Part shown: piece after piece, positions 18,558 to 58,278 of the stretch
Numbering within the stretch: the first letter of the stretch is position 1
How the letters are laid out: each line of letters starts with the position of its first letter
From: Pestalotiopsis fici W106-1
Taxonomy: Eukaryota; Ascomycota; Sordariomycetes; Amphisphaeriales; Sporocadaceae
Reading direction: 5' to 3'
DNA: 64,000 nucleotides
Assembly: GCF_000516985.1 (NCBI RefSeq)
Contig: NW_006917102.1
Location: 496,001 to 560,000 of the forward strand
The notes under the pieces: model-generated
The model's database searches: none
What the model saw: the letters and a program-made list of their open reading frames with translations, nothing else
What the model was told of the DNA's origin: nothing
Program-made: the position numbers and the translations under genes

Positions 18558-19293
18558 AGAAAATGTCTACGCGGAATGTGATTGTAAAGTCATGATGAAT
18601 GCATCTCACGTCTTAACCAGAATACATGCTGTGACTCAAAAGTCTTGGTGATTGACCCTACATGCATATGGCTGTTCTATATGATTGGACTAGGCAAATG
18701 ACCTTCTACCGGGTAGAGTTGATTTGGTTAGTATTTTAACCACAAAGGAAATCGTGACTATTCAATAGATTCATGGATGGCGTACAGGAGCGATGGCTAT
18801 GCTGGTGAACCATTGCAAAGGGGTAACTTTGGTGTCAATAGTAGACTTTACGCTCTAATGCGCTGCTTATTTGTAGACACTGATTAATTTATAAAGTTAT
18901 CACTTGGAAACTTAAGAAGAAGCAAGATTTTGAAAAAGCTCTTTGGCTATATATATTGTCCTTTGGGTATATTAAGTATTACAATTTCTCCTCTTTTTGT
19001 TTCCAGGCCTATGTATGTTTTTTTCTCGGGACTGTTTGGCTAAACCCAGTCCCTTCCTCTGCTTTTCTTTTCTCTTCTATTGAGATGGAAAATAAGAAAC
19101 AAAAAATGCTGTCGAGTTCCTGTGAGAGAGAGACTCCTTGGTATAATGTAGCGCTATTGGGTCGCCCAAGACCTATGCCCACCAGATAAATAATGCGTTC
19201 GTAAGGATCGTAAGAATGATACAGTTGAATGTTCCCTTAAATGCAATGCGAGGGATGAAAAACAGATTGGAATTTCAAAGTCCCAAAGCTGCT
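18558..19293. other. Convergent 3' spacer between glycosylasparaginase and adhesin genes
   Basis: AT-rich compared with the flanking genes and without a supported gene. It holds the two convergent 3' untranslated regions. Confidence 0.5.
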
Positions 19294-21514
19294 TTACAGA
19301 GCAAAGGCCAGAGCGACAAAACCCAGGAAGCCGAGGCCGGAGCCAATGTGAGTGGCGCCGGCAGTGGCGATGGGGGCAGTGGTGGCCGAGGCAGTCTTGC
19401 TGGTCGAGTAGGCACCAGTGCCGGTGGGCTGGGCAGTGATGAGAGTGCTGCCGATGCCAGTACCGGTAGGGTAGGGAGCAGTAGCACCAGTCTTGGTGGC
19501 AGTGGCAGCAGCGGTAGTAGGGACAACAGCAGAGTCTGGGAGCAATGTTAGCAAATGGCATGCAGAGGGCGGAATAGATGCAAGACTTACAAGTGCCGGG
19601 CACAACACCGACGTCAGTGGCACCAGCGCTAGCGGTGGTGAGGACGACCTGGGGAACGGTGACGGCAGTGCTGATGACAACAGTCGAGCTGGAGCTGGCA
19701 ATGGTCGAGATGGTCGAGCCAAGGTCAGTGGTGCAAGGAACGACGGTGGTAACATCAACGACAATGGTGGTGTAGACAGCCGAGGCAGGGACGGTGGCGG
19801 TGGCGGTCAGGTAGGTGGTGATGGTCTCGGCACCAGTGGCAATGCCAGGGTTCTGGCCAACGTAGGCACCGCAGATACCCTGGAAGTAGGAGACAGCCTC
19901 GGAGACAACCTCATCGCTCTCACCGTGGGCGTACAGGCAGCTGAAGACGTTCTCGACAAAGGCAGCATCGGGGCAGTAGCAGCTGGCGTCGGAGTTGTCC
20001 TTGCAGCCAACGCTGAACATCCAGGTGTTCAGGCAAGAAGGAACAACATCGGGGCAAGGCAGGGTCTCGACGGGGACGGCAGGAGAAGTGCCAGAGGAGA
20101 CGGCAACGGTGGAAGAAGTGGCAACCACGGAGCTGGGCTGAGTGACAGCAGCGTTGGAGGAAGACTCAACAGCGGAGCCGGGCTGGGTAGCAACGGGCTG
20201 GCTGGAAGTCAGAGTCAGAGTCTCAGTGACCGGGCAGACGGTGGTGGTGACAGGGACAATGGCAGTGGTAAGGACAGTCGAGTGAGCCGGGCAGTTGGTG
20301 ACAGTCTCGGCGCAAGAGGTGACGGTGGAGACGACAGTGGTCAGGACAGTCGAAGTGGTCAGGTACGAAGTGACCGAGGTGAAGGTGGTGACTTCAGTGG
20401 CCGAAGTGGTGGGAACAGTCACGGAGTAGGTGGCCTCGTTGGAAGAAGCAGTAGTCTCAACCTTGGAGGAGGTGGTCTCGACGGCAGAGGAAGTAGTCTC
20501 GACGGCGGAGGAGGTGGTCTCAACTGCGGAGGAAGTAGTCTCGACCTTGGAAGTGGTCTCAACCTTGGAAGAAGTGGTCTCGACCTTGGATGAGGTGGTC
20601 TCCTGCTGGTAGGTAGAGGCAGTGGACGAAGACTCGGCAACGTTGCTGCTGGTAGTCTTGGCAGAGCTGCTGCTGCTTGGGACCGTGGCAGGGTAAGAAG
20701 AGGATCCAGGGGTCTGGACGGGAATGGTCACAGAGTAGGTCGAGGAGCCAGGAGCCGACGAAGGCTTGGAGGCCGAGTAGGTGCTGACGGTCTCGGAGTG
20801 GCTCTTGGTGGTGGTGGTCTCAACCTTGCTGGTCGAGGTGGTGGCGTGAGTGCTGTAAGTCTTGGTGCTGCTGGCGCTGCCACAGCTGAAGGAGATGGAG
20901 GGAACGGCGAAAGAGCAGGTAGGCTTGGGCTTGCTGGGCTGCGAAGGGTAGACAATGGTGACGTTCTTGGCACCACCGCACTGGGTGTTCTTGACAATGC
21001 TACCAGACGAGGAGCAGGCAGATCGGTGCTTGCAAGTCGAGCCGTCGGGCATGTCGTAGTGGAACTCTAGGTCACAGTCGAACTCGGGGTAGACGTGGAA
21101 CTCGCCGACACTGGTCTTGTCGACACCGGAGGAGGCATCGCAACCGAAAGAGGGCGAGGAGCCCTTGGAGCTCGAGGCGCTTCCGGAAATGCACTTGCTG
21201 GAGACCTTGGTGCGGGCACCGAGCTCGTCACGCTTGTTGAAGCCAGACTGGCAAGTGAAACCAGACCAGGTGAAACCACCATAGCTGCCAACTACACCAT
21301 CAACGAGGTCGGAGAAGTCGAGACCAGCAGCCTGCTTGTCGGTACACTGATTGTCGGTGTTGCCGGGGCAAGAGAAGGAGGGAGCACCAATGAACTATAT
21401 ATGATGTTAGTATACTGAGCAGCATATAGATTGTTTATCTAGAGTTTGACTTACGGTGGCCGAGACCTGGCTGAGGCCAGCAGCAGCCAGGGCCAATGCC
21501 AGAGTGTTCTTCAT
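19294..21514 (-). CDS. mad1: MAD1-like GPI-anchored adhesin with CFEM-like domain
   Basis: Cell-surface adhesin of the Metarhizium MAD1 type; in Metarhizium MAD1 mediates conidial attachment to insect cuticle. Three exons (21514-21455, 21394-19591, 19535-19294) give 701 residues. Residues 1-19 are the signal peptide (MKNTLALALAAAGLSQVSA). A Cys-containing N-terminal domain follows (about 20-165, with FTWSGFTCQSGFNKRDELG). Then comes a long Ser/Thr-rich stalk containing a run of TTSSxVE-type heptad repeats (about 20455-20605 in the DNA). A CFEM-like domain with seven visible cysteines lies at about residues 465-525 (CPDVVPSC, then ASCYCPDAAFVENVFSC). Another Ser/Thr region precedes a C-terminal hydrophobic GPI signal (GLGFLGFVALAFAL). 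Both introns are GT-AG, and the first separates the signal peptide from the mature protein. The gene has an exceptionally long upstream gene-free region. Naming relies on overall architecture and remembered N-terminal similarity, and the host range of this species is unknown. Confidence 0.88.
20455..20605 (-). repeat. Tandem 21-bp repeats encoding (TTSSxVE)n in the adhesin stalk
   Basis: About seven in-frame copies of a heptapeptide of the form VETTSSx, with Lys or Ala at the variable position (SKVETT versus SAVETT). The antisense reading produces long artefactual open frames. Such stalk repeats are O-glycosylation-rich and prone to length variation between strains. Confidence 0.8.
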
Positions 21515-40776: not shown

Positions 40777-40876
40777 NNNNNNNNNNNNNNNNNNNNNNNN
40801 NNNNNNNNNNNNNNNNNNNNNNNNNNNNNNNNNNNNNNNNNNNNNNNNNNNNNNNNNNNNNNNNNNNNNNNNNNNN
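40777..40876. other. Assembly gap of 100 Ns
   Basis: Exactly 100 N characters, the conventional filler for a gap of unknown size, flanked by GA repeats on both sides. Confidence 0.98.
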
Positions 40877-42344: not shown

Positions 42345-44696
42345 TCAAAAGTCCAAATCGGCGCTATTGATTTGATGGTAACCCTTACAATCATCCTCTG
42401 GAACAGATGGAGATTTCCGTAGGGAGTGAAATGCCCCGACAATGAATGTAAACACTATCATACACGTGATTGAAAAGCGGAAAAACCCTATGAATTTCAG
42501 ATTTTCGCTTGTATTGAAAGGCTCCCCACGCATGGATCCAATGGCCGTCGCATGGCTCATACTCCCTTCAACACAGCTCGAATCGCCCCATTTAGCATCC
42601 GCTGCCATTTCCCACAGCCGTGTGGGGTTAATATACGATTTGGCCGTGTAAAATAAGCGACAATCGGCTGCCTCATATACGAACTCTAGAGGGACGAGCT
42701 TATCATCTACTCGTCCCATATTATCAAGTGAGTTGACTGCTCCATTGGCGTGCCCATCTCCACTGAACCGCGCGGAACGGAGGCGTATCTGAGAAGCATT
42801 CAGCAGGCTTCCAACGGGCGTCGTCTGCAGGAGCCTTCGTTCCCCGTCCTTACCGTGTAAGACTGAGGTGATGCGCAGAGTTGTTTGCATGTGTTTAATG
42901 ATAGAGTCAAACGTTAATAGCTGCGCGCCTTTGGTCCCGCCTACGCCTTGCATTGGCTCCTTCCGAGGCCGGCCGCCAATAGCTATTGTCTGAACGTGGC
43001 CCTGCTCTCTCATAAGCTGCGAAAATATAGCGCAAGCAGATTGGCAGATTCCATCATGTAGTATAACCATGTTCTCAGGTAGAAATGGTTGAGTGGGTGA
43101 TGCGAGCAGGGCGAAATTGTAGCCGGTAATATTGACATATGGCGCTAATGTGTGTCCTCCCAAATGATTCGAGAAGTTGTATCGTCTGATGGCGGTGAAA
43201 GCATCACCGTCTTCTCTGTATGGTCCGTAATATGTAGTGAAATTTGCGAATGGCATCCCTTCAATGTTCAGAAGATTTTGGAAGTTCGCGGTGCTCCTTG
43301 CCACTTCACTAAACAACCCGTCGTTCATCACCATGGCTGTATCGCTTTCGATTAGATCCGCTACTGACTTGCTGTACATATAAAAAGCATCATGAGCCCG
43401 AAACCTAGATGCCCCAAACGGTTCCACACTTGGGAATAGTTGCTTGAAGAACTCAAATGCCATGTCAATGGTTCCGCCGCTATTGCCGCGAAGATCGATA
43501 ATAAGCTTTTTCAATCCTTTCTGTTTCGATTGCATTATGAAATCCTGGAGAACTGCTTGGGCTTCGAGGAATCCCGCGACCGTTTCATCCGTGTCTTGTC
43601 TGGGTTCCGCAATCGGTTTGAAATTTGGAAGAGCGAGGACAGCAACGTCATAATGTCGACGAGATTCGAGTTGATAACCTTGGACTGAGAGCCCACTTTG
43701 AGTAATAACGGGTTCTGGATATTCTTCGGGCAGCATGTAAGTGTCTGAACGTAAGAAGATGGGTTCGATCGATTCTGCCGACGTCTGAGTCGGGGAATTG
43801 GCTTCAACCTCATTCGTGTCTCCCTGACAAAATTTTGCAAAGAAGGAGGAGCCGTCATTGATGTTGGAGAAGTTGTAAAACTCGCGAATCATGGCAATGT
43901 TCTCATTCACTACCCTCGAGCCGTTCATGAATCCAAACGTTGTGACTGGTCCATCGTACAGACCTTGCGTGAGGTGAAACTGTCCACCACTATCCATCCC
44001 CACCACCTCAGCAGCAGGGTTGGGGAAAAAGCTGTTATACTGCGCATCTTCGTCGTGGTAGGTACCGTGAGTCCATAAGCTTTGCAGATATTCGGTAGCA
44101 TTTTTGCCATTGATAGTCTCAACGCATGATGGCACAAAATTGCCTGAGGCGCTTGCAAGATGTAGGTCTGAGAGTAGATATAGCCGAGGCAAATCCAGGC
44201 CATCTTCTGAAATTGAGACGAGCTTCGTCTCAGGCCGGACAAATAAGAAAACTTCGAGCATATCTGGGAAGATCCGCAGATGAGAGTCTTTGGCACGCCG
44301 GAATAAGGAGTGTAGGGCAAGCTGTACTTCGAAGTCGCTATGGTATGCCCGGTCTTTAATCGATTGCGCAGTGTAATCGAGCTCGGCTAGTAGATTGAGA
44401 GGCTTGTTGTGAATAGCACTTTCGATATTGATGTAGTGACCAGTATTTAGGCAGTTGAGTGTAGATTGAAATTCCAAGAAATGTTTCGGCTCTTCAATTT
44501 GTTTGATGTCACCTTCTATGTCGACCGGCACTGACATGAGACATTCGAATGCAAGTTGAGCTGGGACTTGAGCTCGGCGGGTTCGCGTGAAAGCTGCAGT
44601 GGCTTGTGCCGCCCATGATGATGAGACCTCCGCGCACGGTGTATTCCATGCCTGGGCAGCCGCATTAAAAATTGACAGGATGAGGAATGAGTGCAT
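42345..44696 (-). CDS. S41-family peptidase of the RiPP cluster, membrane-anchored
   Basis: Single exon, 783 residues. The N-terminus is a signal peptide (MHSFLILSIFNAAAQA). The central and C-terminal parts match fungal S41 (tail-specific/CPAF-like) serine peptidases: KLIIDLRGNSGGTIDMAFEF is the core strand-turn, and HDGICQSACAIFSQLM holds the candidate nucleophile Ser (about residue 552). A hydrophobic segment near residues 732-755 (GFFRFSITCMIVFTFIVGAF) would anchor the protein in a membrane. S41 peptidases of this kind occur in the phomopsin-type dikaritin clusters, where they are proposed to process precursors. Its position directly downstream of the repeat-containing precursor on the same strand supports that role. 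A TATA box lies 78 bases upstream. Unlike most cluster genes it has no introns. Confidence 0.88.
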   Translation of the reverse strand: MHSFLILSIFNAAAQAWNTPCAEVSSSWAAQATAAFTRTRRAQVPAQLAFECLMSVPVDIEGDIKQIEEPKHFLEFQSTLNCLNTGHYINIESAIHNKPLNLLAELDYTAQSIKDRAYHSDFEVQLALHSLFRRAKDSHLRIFPDMLEVFLFVRPETKLVSISEDGLDLPRLYLLSDLHLASASGNFVPSCVETINGKNATEYLQSLWTHGTYHDEDAQYNSFFPNPAAEVVGMDSGGQFHLTQGLYDGPVTTFGFMNGSRVVNENIAMIREFYNFSNINDGSSFFAKFCQGDTNEVEANSPTQTSAESIEPIFLRSDTYMLPEEYPEPVITQSGLSVQGYQLESRRHYDVAVLALPNFKPIAEPRQDTDETVAGFLEAQAVLQDFIMQSKQKGLKKLIIDLRGNSGGTIDMAFEFFKQLFPSVEPFGASRFRAHDAFYMYSKSVADLIESDTAMVMNDGLFSEVARSTANFQNLLNIEGMPFANFTTYYGPYREDGDAFTAIRRYNFSNHLGGHTLAPYVNITGYNFALLASPTQPFLPENMVILHDGICQSACAIFSQLMREQGHVQTIAIGGRPRKEPMQGVGGTKGAQLLTFDSIIKHMQTTLRITSVLHGKDGERRLLQTTPVGSLLNASQIRLRSARFSGDGHANGAVNSLDNMGRVDDKLVPLEFVYEAADCRLFYTAKSYINPTRLWEMAADAKWGDSSCVEGSMSHATAIGSMRGEPFNTSENLKFIGFFRFSITCMIVFTFIVGAFHSLRKSPSVPEDDCKGYHQINSADLDF

Positions 44697-45155: not shown

Positions 45156-45558
45156 TTAATCCTTGGAAACCTCCTCGCGCGGCCAGTACGATCGCAAGTC
45201 AGCAGCGTCGACATCGTTGTCAGGAGCCGCCTTTCGAGGCCAGTAAGATCTCAGGTTGGCAGCATCGACATCATTGTCGGGAGCTGCGTCTCGGGGCCAG
45301 TAAGAACGAAGGTCGGCGGCATCGACATCATTGTCAGGAGCTGCTTTACGAGGCCAGTATGATCTCAGGTTGGCACCATCGACGTCGTTGTCGGGTGATG
45401 GTTCCTGTCGGTCAGGTCAGTCCAATGTCAGAATAGAGTGAGAGTCTCATCGTTTTTCATACCCGTGCCTGGATCCCGCCAACAGTCTGTACAGTTGGTG
45501 CAGCCAAAATAGGTTGGGCGACGGTAAGAAGGATCAGGATTTTGCAAAGGGAAGCCAT
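45156..45558 (-). CDS. Dikaritin-type RiPP precursor with four SYWPR repeats
   Basis: Two exons (45558-45463, 45404-45156; intron GTATGA...GACAG of 58 bases with CTGACC branch sites) encode 114 residues. Residues 1-19 are a signal peptide (MASLCKILILLTVAQPILA). After a short pro-segment, exon 2 holds four tandem units with a 19-residue (57-base) period. Each has the acidic spacer PDNDVD, then A-N/D-L-R and the invariant block SYWPR, followed by K-A, D-A, K-A or E. The protein ends EEVSKD. A secreted precursor with multiple near-identical, aromatic-containing cores is the signature of UstA, PhomA and related dikaritin precursors, whose Tyr-containing cores are crosslinked by UstYa enzymes. Three UstYa genes and an S41 peptidase are adjacent. 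The core is most likely SYWPR or a part of it; exact termini are unknown. Pro-Arg and dibasic-like RK ends are compatible with Kex2-like cleavage, but the usual KR sites are absent. No known product matches this core as far as I recall. Confidence 0.9.
45163..45404 (-). repeat. Four 57-bp tandem repeats in the RiPP precursor
   Basis: Units 1 and 3 resemble each other (ANLRSYWPRKA, with AGA for Arg) and units 2 and 4 resemble each other (ADLRSYWPR followed by D or E, with CGN for Arg). This indicates growth by duplication of a two-unit, 114-bp block. Confidence 0.85.
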
Positions 45559-45599
45559 GTTGATGATTGAGAAACACAGAATAAGATGGGCTTGAGTTG

Positions 45600-45690
45600 A
45601 GATGGAGACTTGAGATGGAGACTTGCGATGGAGACTTGAGATGGAGACTTGAGATGGAGACTTGCGATGGAGACTTGCGATGGAGACTTG
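45600..45690. repeat. 13-bp minisatellite (7 copies) upstream of the precursor ATG
   Basis: Seven head-to-tail copies of (A/C)GATGGAGACTTG with a partial copy on each side. It sits 42 bases upstream of the precursor start codon and downstream of the TATA-like box, so it is probably transcribed as part of the 5' leader. On the sense strand it reads CAAGTCTCCATC(T/G). Confidence 0.92.
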
Positions 45691-45740
45691 AGATTGGATT
45701 CCTGCTTTTCAGAGACCATCTCGAGTGACGAAAGGTGGAA

Positions 45741-46749: not shown

Positions 46750-47753
46750 TTATCCAAGAATGCCCGTCAAATTATGATTCGCCTTGTGCTCCAGTGTCCA
46801 TCCCACCATAGCGTTCCAGTCTTTGCACTGGTGCTCAACACCCCAGCCATCAGTATCAGTACGCTTCTCTCCAAGAGGGGGTTCTCTCGAATGCTCGAGG
46901 GTCATATCGCCAGAACACATGAGGGATTGCCGGATATAATCGAAACAATGGTTGACGTGATCAGGGAACGGGGTGGGATCATGAGTATCCTTGTCCGTGC
47001 CGTGATAAAATCGGTGGGGATCGGTGTTGTTGGCAACTGCTACCATCTCGTAGAATAAAATCCGGATCATTCCCTATATTTGAAACAAATGAGCCATGGT
47101 AAATTGTACAATGTGTCACGCGAGAGTGTATACATACTAGGCAGTGAAGTTGGTGAAACACAGTCACGGAGTAGCGATCTATTCCTTTGTCAGTCGGAAT
47201 ACCGGGCTGGAGACCATATCGATCAGCAGCTTCAGGAACAAGGACGTAGCCATGACCTTCTGCCGAGTGGTTCAGCAAAAAGACTTTCGAGAACGAAGAT
47301 AAGGACGTGAACTCATACCGGGAATCAAGCTGTCCCAGGCTGCATTACTATCCTTCTCTGGCGGTCTTGCAAACAGCTCTTGAAGATCAAATTTAACACC
47401 GTGGGTCTCGACTAGAAACCTGTCAGTTAGCATGTGCCCTGAAAGTCCCATGGAAACTTGAACTCGCTATGTGACCCACAAGTTGGAATAAATGACTCCT
47501 TTTTCCCCGTGTTAGTCTTGACCAGATATGTTGCCCCAAGTACAGTGGCTGGTAGAACGACAATGATCAAAAGGCAGAGTAACCAAAATCTGCGTCGCTG
47601 GTTTTGCGACTCTGGTAGCCTCCCAAACTCTTTCGTAGTTCGAGGGAGTTGATCATCGGAATCACTAGCTACCACCGGCCGATAGAATGGTTTCGGCCAC
47701 AAGAACGAGCGAGACGTTGCTCCTCGAATGAAGTTTGCAATCATGTTCATCAT
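46750..47753 (-). CDS. UstYa-family oxidase (DUF3328), cluster member 1
   Basis: UstYa-type enzyme expected to oxidatively cyclise the RiPP core. Four exons (47753-47480, 47411-47319, 47259-47138, 47073-46750) give 270 residues. A cytoplasmic N-terminus precedes one membrane helix (RRRFWLLCLLIIVVLPATVL). The lumenal domain follows with WDSLIPEGHGYVLVPE and the two hallmark motifs: HxxHC in VTVFHQLHCL and HxxHC in DHVNHCFDYIRQSLMC. Both are intact. The split of the first motif from the rest by an intron right after HCL is shared with the other two UstYa genes, arguing for common descent. The start is the first of three nearby ATGs (MMNM). The donor of intron 1 (GTGGGT) is less typical, so residues at that junction are slightly uncertain. 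It lies head-to-head with the second UstYa gene. Confidence 0.87.
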
Positions 47754-48604: not shown

Positions 48605-49623
48605 ATGGCGCTCAACATGGCTGAAAAGGACCAAGAGAAAGATCAGTTGCTTGATTCCTCTCTCCCATCGGATCGGGCGAGATGGAATCGTGCACAATCA
48701 AATCAATGGTCGAGTACTGCTCAAATGTGTCACATTGTATGCTTGTACATCACAAACATTCTGTTCTTGACTGGGATTGTCGTGCTGTGCATTAGCAAAG
48801 ACAATTGTCGTGATCCAAGTCTTCAAACATATTGTGAGTCATGTTCTGCGATAGGAGAGCGGAAATTGTTACTGACGGTATGTTGAGCCCCTGCAATTGA
48901 GGCTGTTGAATATGAAGAAGTTGTCTTCCATGATCTGCCGGGAGAGTGGTCTCCATATTTTGGAAAACCAACCGATGAGAAGGATAAGCTTTGGGATGAA
49001 CTATACGCTGGTCAGTCGAGCTTTATCCATCTAATCACCATGACACTGATGTGTGACTCAGGGACTGGATTCTTGTTATATACGCCAAAAGAAACGAAAA
49101 AGATGCCGAATCAGACTGTGGCACTTTCCGGTCCTGACGGTGACAGTGGTATCTACAACCTCGAGGTGTTTCATGCGCTTCACTGCCTGGTAGCCAGCCC
49201 TTCCTTCGTCTTCGAAACGTGTTGTGAGGCTAACTCTCAAAGAATGCCATGAGGAAGTCTTTATTCCCAGAACGCTTTCCCGACTATAACATTTGGCGTC
49301 CAAACGGCACGCGAGACGACTTTTGGGAGATCCATCACAGTGCGTGATTCTTCGCTCTTCTTACTCATACAGAGAACATGGGCTTCTGGCTAAACTGAAC
49401 AGGTCACTGTATTGATCGTCTGAGACAAAACATTCAGTGCGCAGGGAATATAGGCGCGAATTACTACTACTGGAACGGTGACATTGAAGACAAAAGATGG
49501 ATGATGGACTTGCGTTCTACACAGACATGCCGTAAATTTGAGAGTTTACAGGAATGGGCAAGGTCTCGAGATTACGTGGGGTGGAATGTAAGAGAAAGGA
49601 GTCACTTCACCAATAGTGGTTAA
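48605..49623 (+). CDS. UstYa-family oxidase (DUF3328), cluster member 2
   Basis: Five exons (48605-48833, 48888-49010, 49062-49189, 49243-49339, 49403-49623) join in frame to 265 residues. After a polar N-terminus comes one membrane helix (CHIVCLYITNILFLTGIVVL). The next exon gives the family signature YSPAIEAVEYEEVVF and the LWDEL segment. Motif 1 is VFHALHCL, with an intron directly after it; motif 2 is HHSHCIDRLRQNIQC. Both HxxHC boxes are complete. The C-terminal tail contains TQTCRKFESLQEWARSRD, a conserved end of many UstYa proteins (the C-R-x-F/W tail). All introns are GT-AG with CTAAC or CTGAC branch sites. Presumed role: copper-dependent oxidative crosslinking of the aromatic core residues, as proposed for UstYa, AprY and PhomY proteins. 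Confidence 0.9.
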
Positions 49624-50541: not shown

Positions 50542-51449
50542 ATGCGAGAAATTTTAGACGCAGAGGAGAGAAGTGGTGATGGCGATATTGCTGAAGGAGA
50601 GTCCTTTCTGCCTCAATCACATGCACGAAAACGCCAAGGTTTATCACTACACCGTGGATGGATGGTCTTGATCGTAACACTGAATCTCGTTGCCCTTCTC
50701 TCCATTTACCTGTTATCGAACTCAAAGAAACCCATATCGACATTTCCAAACCCCTTCCCTTCCCGTGAGTACCCAAAAAAAAAATAAAGGAAAATGTAAG
50801 GAATTTGGATGGACTTCACTTGCTAACTGTATTAGTGGAATACGAGATTAGGTCGTTTGCTGAGGAGTACGAGAGAGACTCTTCGAAAATAGAGAAATGG
50901 GACACAAAATCGGACTATCCACCTGGAGATGGCTACATGTTGATTGAAAATGCTGAAGTGTATGGACTTCCTCCCGGTGTGCTAATGAATGGGAAAGCCA
51001 ATCTATACGGTACTGCTTGGACCCATCAGTATCACTGTCTGGTATGAACACGCACAACAAATTCACGAGTACCATTGTTCTGCGATACTAATCCAATCCT
51101 CGTAAAGGACTATCTGCACAATATGTTCGAAGCTACTCTCCACAACCTCACACTAGAAACACCGAGTCCGCATGGCGATGAGAACGACTCGGGGGCCGGC
51201 GCAGAAATCCATCACGTCAGGCACTGCTTCGACTACCTACGGCAGCACATCCTTTGTAATATGGATATGAGACTAGAGTATCCTACCACAAATCCGAAGG
51301 GGATCAACGGATATGCAATCCCGAGGAAGTGCGTGAGAAGGGTAAGTAATGTCTTGTTCAAACCGCTACATTCAAGAAGTTGGAACTGATTGTGGGAACA
51401 GGAGCCGCTGGATAGATATATGGGGCAAGCTGCGGCGACTCTGGAATAG
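50542..51449 (+). CDS. UstYa-family oxidase (DUF3328), cluster member 3
   Basis: Four exons (50542-50764, 50836-51041, 51108-51341, 51402-51449) give 236 residues. One membrane helix (GWMVLIVTLNLVALLSIYLL) precedes the lumenal domain (LEYEIRSFAEEYERDSSK, then GYMLIENAEVYGLPPGV). Motif 1 is WTHQYHCL, again followed at once by an intron; motif 2 is HHVRHCFDYLRQHILC. The protein lacks the longer tail of member 2 and ends EPLDRYMGQAAATLE from a tiny last exon. Sequence is clearly different from the other two, so the three are not recent duplicates. The ATG at 50542 is the first in frame; upstream codons are not ATG. Confidence 0.88.
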
Positions 51450-53132: not shown

Positions 53133-56100
53133 ATGAACGCGACCGACGATGCCTTCGGGCCTCGCCTCGAGGGCGCGTTCGACTTTACCTTGCTATTCGA
53201 GCAAAGCATTTTTTCAATTTTGCCTTCTGCGGTGCTGATTTGCGTTGCTGCCGCGCGCATTGGCTGGCTACGTCGCAAAGATGTCAAAGTTCGTGCTGGT
53301 ATGCTTTTGGGAGCAAAACTGGTATGCGCATCCCTACCGCAGTAGAGGGCGAAAACTGATACTGACAAAACTCGCCAGGGTACTGCGGGCATCCAGTGTT
53401 GCTTGCAACTTGTTACTCTAGTTCTCTGGTCTGTACCCAACAGCTTACCGACACGTGCCTCTATCCCCGCCTCCGCATTGTCCTTGATTGCGTCCGGTGC
53501 TGTTGGAGCTCTGTTCTACATCGAGCACAGACGGTCAACTGCACCCTCCAAGATTCTTTCCGGTTACCTTTTCCTCACCATATTACTTGATGTCGCCCAA
53601 GCTCGAACATTGTTCCAACGCGCAGGGCTTCGGTCTCTTGCAGCGATCTTTGTGACCAGTTTGTCGATCAAACTTGTGTTGCTGTTGCTGGAAGAAGTCC
53701 CCAAGAGATCATTGTTGGCACCTGGGCTCAAAGAAACTACATCCGTGGAGAAAACAAGTGGCCCACTGAGCCGAACCGTATTTTGGTGGCTGAACAGCCT
53801 TTTCCGTAAAGGATTCGGGGACATACTCTCCCTTGGAGACCTGTCTATCATTCAGGCCAAGTTCACATCACGGCAGCTGCAAGACTGCCTTGGCGCGGTG
53901 TGGGATAAATGTAGAGATCTCAAAATCACATCCTTGGAGTTCAAGGCACTGATTGTCCCCCTCTAGGCAACAAGCAGCGAAAACACTGTCTCACACTCGC
54001 CACTTTCCGTGCTTTCAGCTCGACCTGTGCAATAACTGTCCTGCCGCGATTATGTCTTTCAGCCTTGCGATTTGCCCAACCGTTCCTCATCCAAAGAATC
54101 ATTACTTTCGTCGGCGAACCGCCTACCACAAATTCAAGTGAGATAGCTAGTGGACTCATTGGAGCCACAGCTCTAGTATATATTGGCATGGCAGTAAGAT
54201 ATTTGTCCCTCATTCACCACTCAAAGACCCCATACTCAGTCTCTGCTAGGTCACGCGTGCCTACTATCAACATCTCAATTTTCAACTCACGACAATGATC
54301 CGAGGAGGCCTAGTTGCCCTTATATTTCAGAAGACATTGGAGCTTGATAGCACAAAGGCTAGCGAAGGCGACGCCATCAGTCTTATAAGTGCCGACATTG
54401 AAGGCATTGAACCAGGAATCAGTCTTATTCACGAAGTATGGGCCAGCATCATTGAACTTGGCATTGCCTTGTACTTGTTGGAAAGGCAAGTTGGGGCTGC
54501 CTGTTTCTTCGTGATAATTCCTGCTGCCGGTAACTTATTGTCCCGCGACTCAAAATTATCAAATCATCTTGCTAACATCACAAAGGTGCGAGCATGTTGA
54601 CTTCCCAATTAATGAAGGCAATGCGCCCTGCAAGGATGAGTTGGGGCAAAGCCATCAAAGAGCGAGTGTCTGCTTCGTCGAACATGCTAGCACAGATAAA
54701 GTCACTCAAGACCATGGGTTTGACCAGCTACATGTCTACGTCTATTCAGAATCTCCGTGTCGCCGAGTTGGACGTGTCGAGGAAGTTTCGTCTAGCACTG
54801 ATACGCATTCTGACTACGGGTAAGAGCTAGAAGACTGTGATGAACGTCTCGTACCGGCTAACGTTCCATTCAGGCCGTCTTGCCGACCAAATGACCCCGG
54901 TCGTCATTATTGCTGGTGCAGTTTTCTGGACGAAACGCACCGAGGATCAAGAGCTCTCTGTAGCTGAAGTTTTCTCTGCCCTCGCGATCATCTCCTTGGT
55001 CTCGTCGCCAATCTCACAGCTCATTTCCTGCCTTCCAAATGCCATGGCATCCATAGCCTGCTTTGACCGAATCCAAGAGTATCTATTGGAGGAGGAAATT
55101 GGAAGCTCTTGCCTTAAGCCATCGAAATCTCACGATAACACCGACTTCGAAGAACGAGAGGGAGGAGCGTCTGGTCTCCCGTTGTCTGCATCCATCGAAT
55201 TGACCGGCATGATACCGCATCAGTCACGTTCGCCCTCGAGTCCGGCTGCGGTCATTGTGAAAGATGGATTTTACACGCCAGCTGATTCTGGCAGTCCTAT
55301 ACTACAGGGTATCAACCTTTCGGTCAGTTGGTCTTCGTGTGTGATGATTGCTGGTCCGATTGGCTCAGGCAAAACAACTCTACTGAAAATTATACTTGGT
55401 GAAAAACCTCTATCCAAGGGCTCTATTCAAGTCGACCGCAACCAGATTGCATACTGTAACCAGACGCCGTGGCTTCGAAATATATCTGTTCGGGATAACA
55501 TCGTCAGTCCGAATCTTTGGGATGACTTGTGGTTTGCCACCGTTGTCCGAGCTTGTGCTCTAGACAAGGATTTATCCCTACTGCCAAATGGCGATCAAAC
55601 TCTTGTCGGTAGTGGGGGCGTGGCTCTGAGCGGTGGTCAAAAACAGCGCGTTGTAAGTGCAGATACCAGCCCTAACCGACATCCAGATGCTAAACTCAGT
55701 AGGCTTTAGCTCGTGCAGTGTACTCACACAAGAGCATTCTCATTCTTGACGATGTCTTGAGTGCCCTCGATAATGCGACTGGCTCAATAGTCTTTGAGAG
55801 GCTACTGGGTAAAGAAGGAATTCTCAGGTCAAGGGATATTACGGTTGTGCTTGCAACACACTCTGGTAATTTTCGAACTCCGTCATGTTTCGTATGAGTG
55901 GCCACTGAACTTTTCCCACGCAGTTCACTATTTACCTGCGTCCGACGCAATTATTGTCCTAGCCAAGGATGGCCAGATTGCTCAACAAGGCACCTTTGGC
56001 GACTTGAAAAATACAGATGGATATGTTAGAGATCTGGCTCTAGAGCAAATTGCGCGCGCTAAAGCCATGGAAGACGAAGATACCACAGATGGCGCGGAAT

Positions 56101-58278
56101 CCAAACCGAAAGTTGAGGCCGCCAACGAAAACTCTGAGGCGTTGGACCTCAAGCGACAGACAGGCGATATAAGCCTGTATACATTCTACTTTAAGTCTGT
56201 CAGTTGGTTTCTGGCGGTTTTCTGGCTAGCCCTTGCGATCCTTTACACCGGTCTTTCCAAGATACCAGGTAAGTGCTTCCATTCATACGTGAATACATTC
56301 ACCTGCGTCAAGGCCTTTGAGGACGCTGATCGAGTCGGTAGATGTCTGGATCCGAATATGGGCCGAACAGGGAATGAACAACAATTCTGGTTATTACTTC
56401 GGATCATATTTTGCACTGTCATTCTCGAGCGTCTTAGCATCAGCATTTAGTGTCAGGTAAGTCCTAACACATTTCCCAGCGACTAGAATGAGCCACTAAT
56501 GAGTGAACTCAAGTTTCTTTATGCTGGTCATTGTGCCTAAATCAGCTCAACATCTCCATTGGCTCTTCCTCGAGTCTGTGATGAAGTAAGTGACCTGGGC
56601 TGTCGCTATTCGAGCCTGCAGCTGACGCATCCTACTAGGGCACCTTTGTGGTTCTTCACTACTACCGATAGCGGTGTAACCCTTAACAGGTTCGCCCAAG
56701 ACATGACTCTACTGGACAATCGACTGCCCGTGGCCGTATATCACACAATCTACGGTAAGTCACCCCACCACAACTGAGATTCCTTGAGTGGTGGCGCTGA
56801 TTCGGCGACTACTTTAGACGTCCTCTTTGTCCTGCTGAGTACCGCCCTGATTGCTGCTGGTGCACAATACGTGGCAGCAGTGATTCCGTTCAGCGTTATC
56901 GCCCTGTACCTTCTTGCGAAGTATTATCTGCGAACATCACGCCAGATACGTTACCTCGATCTCGAAGCCAAAACGCCCTTGTTCACCCTTTTGACTGAAA
57001 CAATTGATGGCCTAAGTACTATCCGGGCGTTCGGTTGGAGGCGATCGATTCTCGAGGAAAGCTTCAGACTTCTTGATGGATCTCAGAAGCCTTATTATTT
57101 GCTCTTCTGTATTCAGCGCTGGTTGACAGTCGTTCTCGATCTGTTCATAGCTGCGATTGCTGTTATACTAGTTGCCTTTGCTGTGAAATTCCGCAATACC
57201 ACGACGCAAGGTGCCATTGGCGTTGCCATGGTCAATATTCTCGGTCTCAATACAGAGCTTTCCGAGCTTGTCAACAACTGGGCTGATCTGGAGACTTCAT
57301 TGGGCGCTATTGCGAGGTTACGCTCGTTCTTGCAAGATACTCCAAAGGAAGATGACCCTGGGAGAGTCGCACCAGCAGATGCGACCTGGCCCTCCCAAGG
57401 TCGTGTAGATCTCAAGGGCCTGTCGGCTGCATATAGGTTTGCAACCAATTCTCGAGTCTCTACCACATATATCGACACTAATTCACAATACTAGGGCAAA
57501 TGATAATCCCGTGCTTCGCAACGTGTCCCTTAGTGTACTGCCCGGCCAGAAGATTGGAATTTGTGGTCGCACTGGAAGGTAAGTCCGCACAGACCGGTTA
57601 GGGATCGGGACTCCGTGAAGTATTATATAGATATTGACCATTCATCGCAGTGGGAAAAGCTCTCTAATCTTGACTATTCTGCGTCTCCTTGAGATCGAAT
57701 CGGGGGCAATCAGTATCGATGGTGTGGACCTTTCCACAGTATCAAGGGAGTCGGTTCGGACCCGCATTATTACCCTGCCTCAAGACCCCGTTAAGCTATC
57801 TGGCACTGTGCGTCAAAACCTTATTCCCGGCGAAGCTGCTTCCTCCCTTGCTACCGCCGGTGGCAACGAAGACGAGCGCCTGGAGTCGGCCCTGACCAGA
57901 GTCGACATGTGGGACTTGATACGGGAGCGCGGCGGGCTTGATGCTGATTTTGGCGACATGGAACTGTCTCAAGGCCAGCGACAGCTCTTCTGTCTCGCCC
58001 GCGCGATCCTGCGTCGCAATGACAGTACGATCGTGCTTTTAGATGAGCCAACAAGCAGCATCGATCGGGAGACGGACGAGCGGGTGATGAAGGTCATTCG
58101 CGAGGATTTCAAGCACTGCACTGTTATTGCGGTGGCGCACAGGCTTGAGACCATTCTGGATAGCGACGTGATCGCTGTTATGGATGCGGGCAAGATCCAG
58201 GAGATTGGTGAACCGAAGGCTCTGCTGGGACAGGCTGACTCAAGGTTCAAGGCGTTGTGGGACAGCAGAAATGGCTGA
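53133..58278 (+). CDS. Full-length ABCC (MRP-type) transporter of the RiPP cluster
   Basis: Fourteen exons (53133-53321, 53379-53910, 53967-54193, 54250-54529, 54586-54819, 54874-55652, 55703-55865, 55924-56268, 56342-56456, 56514-56585, 56639-56754, 56818-57436, 57495-57578, 57651-58278) join without any frame break to 1460 residues, the normal length for TMD0-TMD1-NBD1-TMD2-NBD2 ABCC pumps. The N-terminal hydrophobic TMD0 begins in exon 1. NBD1 has Walker A GPIGSGKTT, signature LSGGQKQRV and Walker B ILILDDVLSALD (Asp in place of the catalytic Glu, usual for NBD1 of ABCC). NBD2 has GRTGSGKSS, signature LSQGQRQ and Walker B STIVLLDEPTSSID (canonical Glu). Expected role: ATP-driven export of the cluster product or self-protection. 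The exporter is intact, suggesting the cluster is functional. Substrate is inferred only from location. Confidence 0.9.

What the first reader, a model, noticed from the sequence alone, without database searches (positions are those of the whole stretch)
45156..45558. New dikaritin-type RiPP precursor with fourfold SYWPR core
Seen: signal peptide, then four 19-residue repeats with invariant SYWPR and PDNDVD spacers, in an intron-containing gene beside UstYa genes. Known: ustiloxin, phomopsin and asperipin precursors share this layout with cores YAIG, YVIPID and FYYTGY. Inferred: the Tyr and Trp are crosslinked to give a cyclic peptide. A Tyr-Trp-Pro-Arg core is unlike any I recall, so the product is probably undescribed.
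Basis: partly seen in the sequence, partly recalled or inferred. Interest (0 to 1): 0.93.

Follow-up and report, generated by a model that had tools for sequence, protein, structure and literature searches.

The report
SYWPR repeat precursor beside UstYa oxidases
A fungal gene encodes a small, probably secreted protein made of four near-identical 19-residue units ending in Ser-Tyr-Trp-Pro-Arg, sits beside three UstYa-family genes, and is predicted to be the precursor of a likely undescribed, oxidatively modified small peptide of the ustiloxin-like (dikaritin) kind.

Summary
A two-exon gene on the minus strand (45558..45156) encodes 114 residues: a signal-like N-terminus, four 19-residue units ending in SYWPR, then EEVSKD. 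The units differ mostly at synonymous sites (pS 0.65, pN 0.09; SYWPR unchanged). Neoarthrinium moseri has a two-unit ortholog with the same junction. Three UstYa genes with paired HxxHC motifs, an S41/CPAF-like peptidase and an MRP-type transporter flank it. It is most likely a dikaritin-type RiPP precursor. Junctions are mono-basic (WPR, QAR): RK at two of five, no dibasic site in N. moseri, so the published KEP definition is not met. A Tyr-Trp cross-link is unproven: the closest in-genome relative reads DLRSAWAKR, with Trp but not this Tyr, whereas survey data favour Tyr as the usual target. With 1758 UstYa-associated repeat precursors already catalogued, a new core alone is not rare. Verdict: a real new variant of a known kind, product unknown.

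The parts
45463..45558 (-). precursor exon 1: MASLCKILILLTVAQPILAAPTVQTVGGIQAR (signal-like N-terminus, short pro-region ending in QAR)
   Evidence: N. moseri P0001 has MASLSQLLVLLAAIQPILAAPVVQAVGSVQAR
45405..45462 (-). intron, 58 nt, GT...AG with CTGAC branch-like sequence; the unspliced frame reaches a stop at once
   Evidence: junction position agrees with the N. moseri protein
45156..45404 (-). precursor exon 2: four 19-residue units plus EEVSKD and stop
45348..45404 (-). unit 1 EPSPDNDVDGANLRSYWPR
45291..45347 (-). unit 2 KAAPDNDVDAADLRSYWPR
45234..45290 (-). unit 3 DAAPDNDVDAANLRSYWPR
45177..45233 (-). unit 4 KAAPDNDVDAADLRSYWPR
46750..47750 (-). UstYa gene 1 (several exons; HQLHC and HVNHC)
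   Evidence: Pfam PF11807 1.2e-31 on the hand-spliced model; motifs; reading frames
48605..49623 (+). UstYa gene 2 (several exons; HALHC and HHSHC)
   Evidence: PF11807 2.1e-41 on a hand-spliced model that carried X at an unsure junction; motifs; frames
50542..51407 (+). UstYa gene 3 (several exons; HQYHC and HVRHC); first junction, last exon and 3' end uncertain
   Evidence: PF11807 2.3e-13 on the hand-spliced model; motifs; frames
42345..44696 (-). S41 peptidase with CPAF-like PDZ domain, single open frame, 783 aa
   Evidence: PF23658 3.8e-31 and PF03572 5e-9; extent; H139 and S553 invariant in all 15 aligned sequences; model pLDDT 79, best PDB match CPAF 3dor
53133..58278 (+). MRP-type (ABCC) ABC transporter, several exons, not fully modelled
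   Evidence: PF00005 in two separate open frames, PF00664, TIGR00957 best NCBIfam match for both, below its cut-off for these fragments; start codon seen

Best explanation
This gene encodes a four-unit repeat protein that is probably secreted and is likely the precursor of a dikaritin-type RiPP, in which the neighbouring UstYa enzymes are predicted to oxidise the aromatic end (LRSYWP) of each unit. Predicted steps, none shown by experiment: (1) signal peptidase cuts near ILA; (2) in the Golgi a Kex2-type protease cuts after WPR and QAR, giving 19-mers, a Kex1-type carboxypeptidase removes the Arg, and a Ste13-type dipeptidase may trim the XA/XP pairs that open 4 of 4 units (EP-SP, KA-AP, DA-AP, KA-AP); (3) one or more of the three UstYa copper enzymes oxidise or cross-link the Tyr-Trp end, with the acidic PDNDVDAA stretch as recognition sequence; (4) the S41/CPAF-like peptidase or a general protease removes the acidic part; (5) the MRP-type transporter exports the product. 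Shown by sequence: gene structure, repeats, constraint on the peptide, ortholog, neighbouring genes and their HxxHC motifs.
For: Gene structure and constraint on the peptide. Ortholog in another fungus with the same junction and core. Three UstYa genes whose near ends lie about 1.2, 3.0 and 5.0 kb from the precursor start, each with both HxxHC motifs; that motif pair forms the copper site of the family member CctR (PMC12435403, passages). S41/CPAF peptidase with conserved His and Ser and a matching fold. ABC transporter. UstYa-type genes crowd around repeat precursors, on average 3.09 genes away (PMC7329392 abstract and section 7). Kex2 accepts Pro at P2 (PMC8528282, passages).
Against: No transcript, peptide or product data. 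The dibasic Kex2 sites usual for the class are missing; P4 at SYWPR is Tyr, not the aliphatic residue Kex2 prefers. No tyrosinase in the window, the two matches on the same contig lie over 400 kb away, though clusters without one, with asperipin-2a named beside them, are said not to be uncommon (PMC12048977 passage). No hit bearing the name N. moseri appears among homologs of UstYa 3 (3 hits, 2 of them unnamed) or of the S41 peptidase (41 hits, many unnamed), and UstYa 1 and 2 were not searched, so linkage of this precursor to these enzymes outside this genome is not shown.
Confidence: 0.7

Rival explanations
1. The first reader's specific form (a sub-case of the best explanation): Tyr and Trp of SYWPR are cross-linked to each other by UstYa enzymes, giving a small cyclic Tyr-Trp-Pro peptide.
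For: Tyr is kept in 4 of 4 units here and 2 of 2 in N. moseri. Ustiloxin, asperipin and phomopsin are closed through Tyr (PMC7329392 section 3), and Tyr is enriched in repeats with UstYa-type neighbours, 65.6% against 38.2%.
Against: Adjacent Tyr and Trp side chains would need a strained bridge (inference). The DLRSAWAKR relative lacks Tyr at this place, though it has one further upstream with five residues between it and Trp. Victorin is closed between Phe and Leu, so other residues can serve (PMC9233826 passage).
Confidence: 0.25
2. The gene releases a linear signalling peptide (pheromone-like), for example DNDVDAADLRSYWP, and the UstYa genes act on something else.
For: Every unit here opens with XA/XP pairs of the kind Ste13 removes from pheromones (sequence; Ste13 rule in PMC6339444 passages).
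Against: Pheromone-type precursors are, with three exceptions, not accompanied by UstYa-type genes (PMC7329392 abstract) and use KR-type sites. No other repeat-bearing frame was seen next to these UstYa genes, apart from frames over the upstream 13-bp repeat and the other frames of the precursor.
Confidence: 0.15
3. The gene is an ordinary secreted repeat protein that is not cut into units.
For: Non-standard cleavage sites.
Against: If units are taken to end at Arg, the exon boundary falls at a unit start; copy number differs (4 against 2) while the unit is kept, as in multi-core precursors.
Confidence: 0.08

Closest known systems
Dikaritins: ustiloxin, phomopsin, asperipin-2a, victorin precursors (and epichloecyclin GigA)
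   Same: Signal-like N-terminus, tandem cores, UstYa/DUF3328 neighbours with two HxxHC motifs, cluster peptidase and transporter.
   Different: Core LRSYWP with Trp; units separated by WPR/QAR rather than KR-type sites; no tyrosinase in the window.
KEPs, Kex2-processed repeat proteins (PMC6339444, PMC7329392), including Trp-bearing kinds: type P-3, Trp with Pro, 4 of 7 members with DUF3328 neighbours, and the YVW motif
   Same: Repeated units each ending in Arg after a signal-like N-terminus; Trp is not unusual in such repeats (20.5% of those with UstYa-type neighbours).
   Different: Fails the published definition of at least three repeats between KR, KK, RK or RR: RK at 2 of 5 junctions, none in N. 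moseri. Whether type P-3 resembles SYWPR could not be checked; its sequences are in figures and supplements not held.
DLRSAWAKR repeat precursor in the same genome (G000 C2:4922534-4922863)
   Same: Acidic NNEVDADEYDLRSxW block; two UstYa matches about 6 and 9 kb away.
   Different: KR-separated, Ala instead of Tyr before Trp; no S41 match nearby, a prokumamolisin-type peptidase instead.
N. moseri protein JN550_013415 (P0001)
   Same: Ortholog: same N-terminus, junction and SYWPR; PDNDVD in one unit and PENDVD in the other.
   Different: Two units instead of four; uncharacterised; its neighbourhood could not be read here.

Membership tests
Dikaritin RiPP cluster (criteria of Ding et al. and Montalban-Lopez as quoted in PMC12048977) | Precursor with N-terminal leader and repeated core/recognition motifs | tested here: met
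   signal peptide judged by eye
Dikaritin RiPP cluster (criteria of Ding et al. and Montalban-Lopez as quoted in PMC12048977) | UstYa/DUF3328 proteins with two HxxHC motifs (class-defining enzyme) | tested here: met
   3 of 3 genes
Dikaritin RiPP cluster (criteria of Ding et al. and Montalban-Lopez as quoted in PMC12048977) | Transporter or peptidase in the cluster | tested here: met
   S41/CPAF peptidase and ABC transporter
Dikaritin RiPP cluster (criteria of Ding et al. and Montalban-Lopez as quoted in PMC12048977) | Tyrosinase (not present in all known members) | tested here: not met
   0 of the 87 PF00264 matches reported lie in the window
Dikaritin RiPP cluster (criteria of Ding et al. 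and Montalban-Lopez as quoted in PMC12048977) | Methyltransferase (not present in all known members) | tested here: inconclusive
   none among the ORFs scanned, but not every ORF of 42-58 kb was scanned
Dikaritin RiPP cluster (criteria of Ding et al. and Montalban-Lopez as quoted in PMC12048977) | Modified, usually cyclic product | not testable with these tools
   needs mass spectrometry
KEP (PMC7329392 definition) | At least 3 tandem repeats of at least 8 residues between KR, KK, RK or RR | tested here: not met
   RK at residues 51 and 89 only; none in P0001
Ascomycete alpha-type pheromone precursor (PMC6339444, PMC7329392) | KR-type site followed by XA/XP pairs before each unit, as a rule without UstYa neighbours | tested here: not met
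   XA/XP pairs present in 4 of 4 units, but no KR and three UstYa neighbours

The most novel reading that the evidence does not exclude
The locus represents a Trp-directed branch of dikaritins in which UstYa copper enzymes modify the Trp of an LRSxW core and in which units are freed at Pro-Arg instead of dibasic sites, so that the branch has been passed over by surveys that look for KR-type junctions.
Probability: 0.3. Interest if true: 0.68.

Novelty: new variant of a known kind. Interest (0 to 1): 0.5.

Why it matters
Only five dikaritin products had been reported by 2022, against 1758 repeat precursors with UstYa-type neighbours catalogued in 2020 (PMC10512285 and PMC7329392). A Trp-bearing core freed without KR junctions would extend what UstYa enzymes are known to act on, and it warns that surveys requiring dibasic sites miss members. 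The in-genome set of at least six UstYa-adjacent precursors (this one and five others) offers a ready comparison of core and enzyme.

Tried and rejected
Tried without result: the genome search with the SYWPR exon found only itself and one weak match on C5 (E 0.03, 35%); the search with the RSAWA precursor found only itself at E up to 10, so their kinship rests on the alignment and shuffle test, not on a database search. Kinship with the NSWSAR precursor looked plausible by eye but failed the shuffle test (2620 of 5000 shuffles reach its score), as did PLYW (2287), YLVKY (653), EYLNY (2669) and EYHHY (3259); I dropped the idea of a six-member family, which my note still states. A UstYa tree of 14 chained gene fragments (3 of the window, 11 others) is weakly resolved with long branches; UstYa 1 is nearest to a gene of the C1 cluster (41% over 170 residues) and UstYa 2 to one of the RSAWA cluster (31% over 170), and I draw no conclusion from it. 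Solved-structure searches by sequence gave nothing below E 0.3 for the S41 protein or UstYa 1. The paper search on DUF3328 and tryptophan showed no UstYa product with a Trp bridge in the 25 of 279 papers listed (titles and abstract beginnings only). The N. moseri genome paper was searched for six terms and seen in passages only; the gene is not mentioned in those. Rejected: a tyrosinase-dependent ring closure encoded in this cluster.

A further repeat row near a UstYa gene, with two copies of a di-His unit (L019), had also been left out and is now listed under noticed in passing.

Papers: PMC7329392 abstract, outline, sections 3, 6 (part 1), 7 and 13; PMC6339444 section 10 and passages; PMC12048977, PMC8528282, PMC12435403, PMC9233826, PMC10512285 and PMC12369201 passages only. 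The Kex1 step rests and general knowledge.

Full report
What is there. The minus strand from 45558 to 45156 holds a two-exon gene. Exon 1 encodes a signal-like stretch and a short pro-region ending in QAR; a 58-nt GT-AG intron with a CTGAC branch-like sequence follows; exon 2 encodes four 19-residue units, EPSPDNDVDGANLRSYWPR, KAAPDNDVDAADLRSYWPR, DAAPDNDVDAANLRSYWPR and KAAPDNDVDAADLRSYWPR, then EEVSKD and a stop. If units are taken to end at Arg, exon 2 begins at a unit boundary.

More than chance. The units are 57-nt direct repeats, but the DNA has drifted while the peptide has hardly changed. Over the six pairs pS is 0.654 and pN 0.088, and the five SYWPR codons show 15 synonymous and no non-synonymous differences, summed over pairs. 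Of the variable columns 6, 1 and 14 fall on codon positions 1, 2 and 3. The pN/pS ratio is 0.13 in the coding frame; the other two sense frames show 2.1 and 22, from three units each; two antisense frames gave 0.98 and 0.26 and the third ended in a division by zero. Pairs are not independent, so these are descriptions and not test values.

Relatives. A search of about 5.8 billion proteins returned one homolog at E up to 1 among 1750 candidates: P0001 of Neoarthrinium moseri (JN550_013415, 75 residues, E 9.4e-27). It has the same N-terminus, the same splice junction (..VQAR|GLSPDNDVD..) and two SYWPR units. Four units against two with the unit conserved is what multi-core precursors show. In the window's own genome (51.7 Mb, 20 contigs) the gene is single.

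Neighbours. Three UstYa genes lie at 46750-47750 (-), 48605-49623 (+) and 50542-about 51407 (+); Pfam PF11807 matches the hand-spliced models at 1.2e-31, 2.1e-41 and 2.3e-13, and each has two HxxHC motifs. The HxxHC pair is the copper site proposed and tested by mutation in CctR (PMC12435403 passages). At 42345-44696 (-) is an S41 peptidase with a CPAF-like PDZ domain; His139 and Ser553 are invariant among the 15 sequences aligned, the window's own and 14 of the other 40 hits, and the AlphaFold model (mean pLDDT 79) matches CPAF best in the PDB (E 1e-10, TM 0.58 by target length, but rmsd 10.2 and 11% identity). At 53133-58278 (+) is an MRP-type ABC transporter. No tyrosinase lies in the window: 0 of the 87 matches reported.

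Where it differs. Known dikaritin precursors are cut at Kex2 sites, and the survey definition of KEPs asks for at least three repeats between KR, KK, RK or RR (PMC7329392). Here Arg follows Pro or Ala; RK occurs at two of five junctions, and the N. moseri protein has no dibasic pair at all. Kex2 tolerates Pro at P2 but prefers an aliphatic P4 (PMC8528282); Tyr stands at P4. So Kex2 cleavage is plausible but unproven, and the gene fails the KEP test. Each of the four units opens with XA or XP pairs (EP-SP, KA-AP, DA-AP, KA-AP); in N. moseri one of two does fully (NA-AP) and the other only in the second pair (GL-SP). Such pairs follow Kex2 sites in pheromones (PMC6339444), which fits cleavage after WPR and also feeds the linear-peptide rival.

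The same genome as a yardstick. UstYa pieces number 48. I fetched 20 stretches that hold 37 of them and scanned these and the window for tandem peptide repeats. Five further precursors were picked by eye from the rows and read in full: NNEVDADEYDLRSAWAKR (three units, L017), NSWSAR (three, L020), ATPLYW..KR (two, L021), YLVKYEGDEEAAKDKR (L014) and EYLNYAKR/EYHHYNNKR (L011). A sixth row, in L019, was not examined. Four of the five use KR at the junctions, NSWSAR does not. Only the DLRSAWAKR unit is alignable with the window unit beyond shuffles (12 of 5000; about 0.014 after correction for six comparisons), while the N. moseri control gave 0 of 5000 and the other five comparisons failed. In that relative the Trp and the LRS block are kept and the Tyr before Trp is Ala.

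Tyr or Trp. That one relative is why I keep open a target on Trp or on the LRSxW block. Against it, the published survey finds Tyr in 65.6% of repeats with UstYa-type neighbours and 38.2% of those without, while Trp is no more frequent with such neighbours (20.5%) than without (24.5%); Trp-bearing repeats beside UstYa-type genes are thus not new as such, and one surveyed type (P-3) has Trp with Pro (PMC7329392). The residue that is modified cannot be told from sequence.

Mechanism and confidence. Most likely this is a dikaritin-type precursor: entry into the secretory path, cutting after WPR, Arg removal, oxidative change of the aromatic end by UstYa enzymes, trimming by the S41 peptidase or others, export by the transporter. 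Sequence shows the parts; every step is inferred. I give 0.7 to this, 0.25 to the specific Tyr-Trp bridge (a sub-case), 0.15 to a linear signal and 0.08 to an uncut protein.

Against. There are no expression or product data. No hit named N. moseri appears among UstYa 3 homologs (3 hits, 2 unnamed) or S41 homologs (41 hits, many unnamed); UstYa 1 and 2 were not searched. Conservation of the whole cluster is therefore not shown. P0001 stands for one sequence only, although three N. moseri strains have been sequenced.

Known or new. SYWPR and six further strings, RSAWAKR among them, occur in no paper of the held open library; most subscription papers and all supplements were out of reach, so an entry in a supplementary list of precursors cannot be excluded. 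With 1758 UstYa-associated repeat precursors catalogued and few products known, I file it as a new variant of a known kind, with interest about 0.5.

Noticed in passing
window 45594-45707: Head-to-tail 13-bp repeat (GAGATGGAGACTT-like, about eight copies) directly upstream of the precursor start, in its promoter or 5' untranslated region; could vary in number between strains and affect expression.
   Followed up: no
L017 5534-5866 (G000 C2:4922534-4922863): Second precursor, three NNEVDADEYDLRSAWAKR units, near two UstYa matches and a prokumamolisin-type peptidase with a weak S8-like piece.
   Followed up: partly
L020 7040-7380: Intron-containing repeat precursor with three NSWSAR units separated without KR, next to UstYa genes and about 4.5 kb from a methyltransferase gene.
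   Followed up: partly
L014 2650-3078: Repeat precursor YLVKYEGDEEAAKDKR in a UstYa cluster.
   Followed up: partly
L011 4814-5401: Repeat precursor alternating EYLNY and EYHHYNN cores with KR junctions, in a cluster with several UstYa matches.
   Followed up: partly
L021 8034-8382: Repeat precursor with two PLYW units and KR junctions.
   Followed up: partly
L019 7420-7965: Open frame with two copies of a REPHHKGRGKKAGAKR-type unit about 3 kb from a UstYa match; a possible further precursor of the di-His kind.
   Followed up: no
window 19154-21394: Long Ser/Thr-rich protein with ETTSSKV/ETTSSAV repeats, wall-protein-like by eye.
   Followed up: no
window 40777-40876: 100-base run of N next to a simple GA-type repeat.
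   Followed up: no
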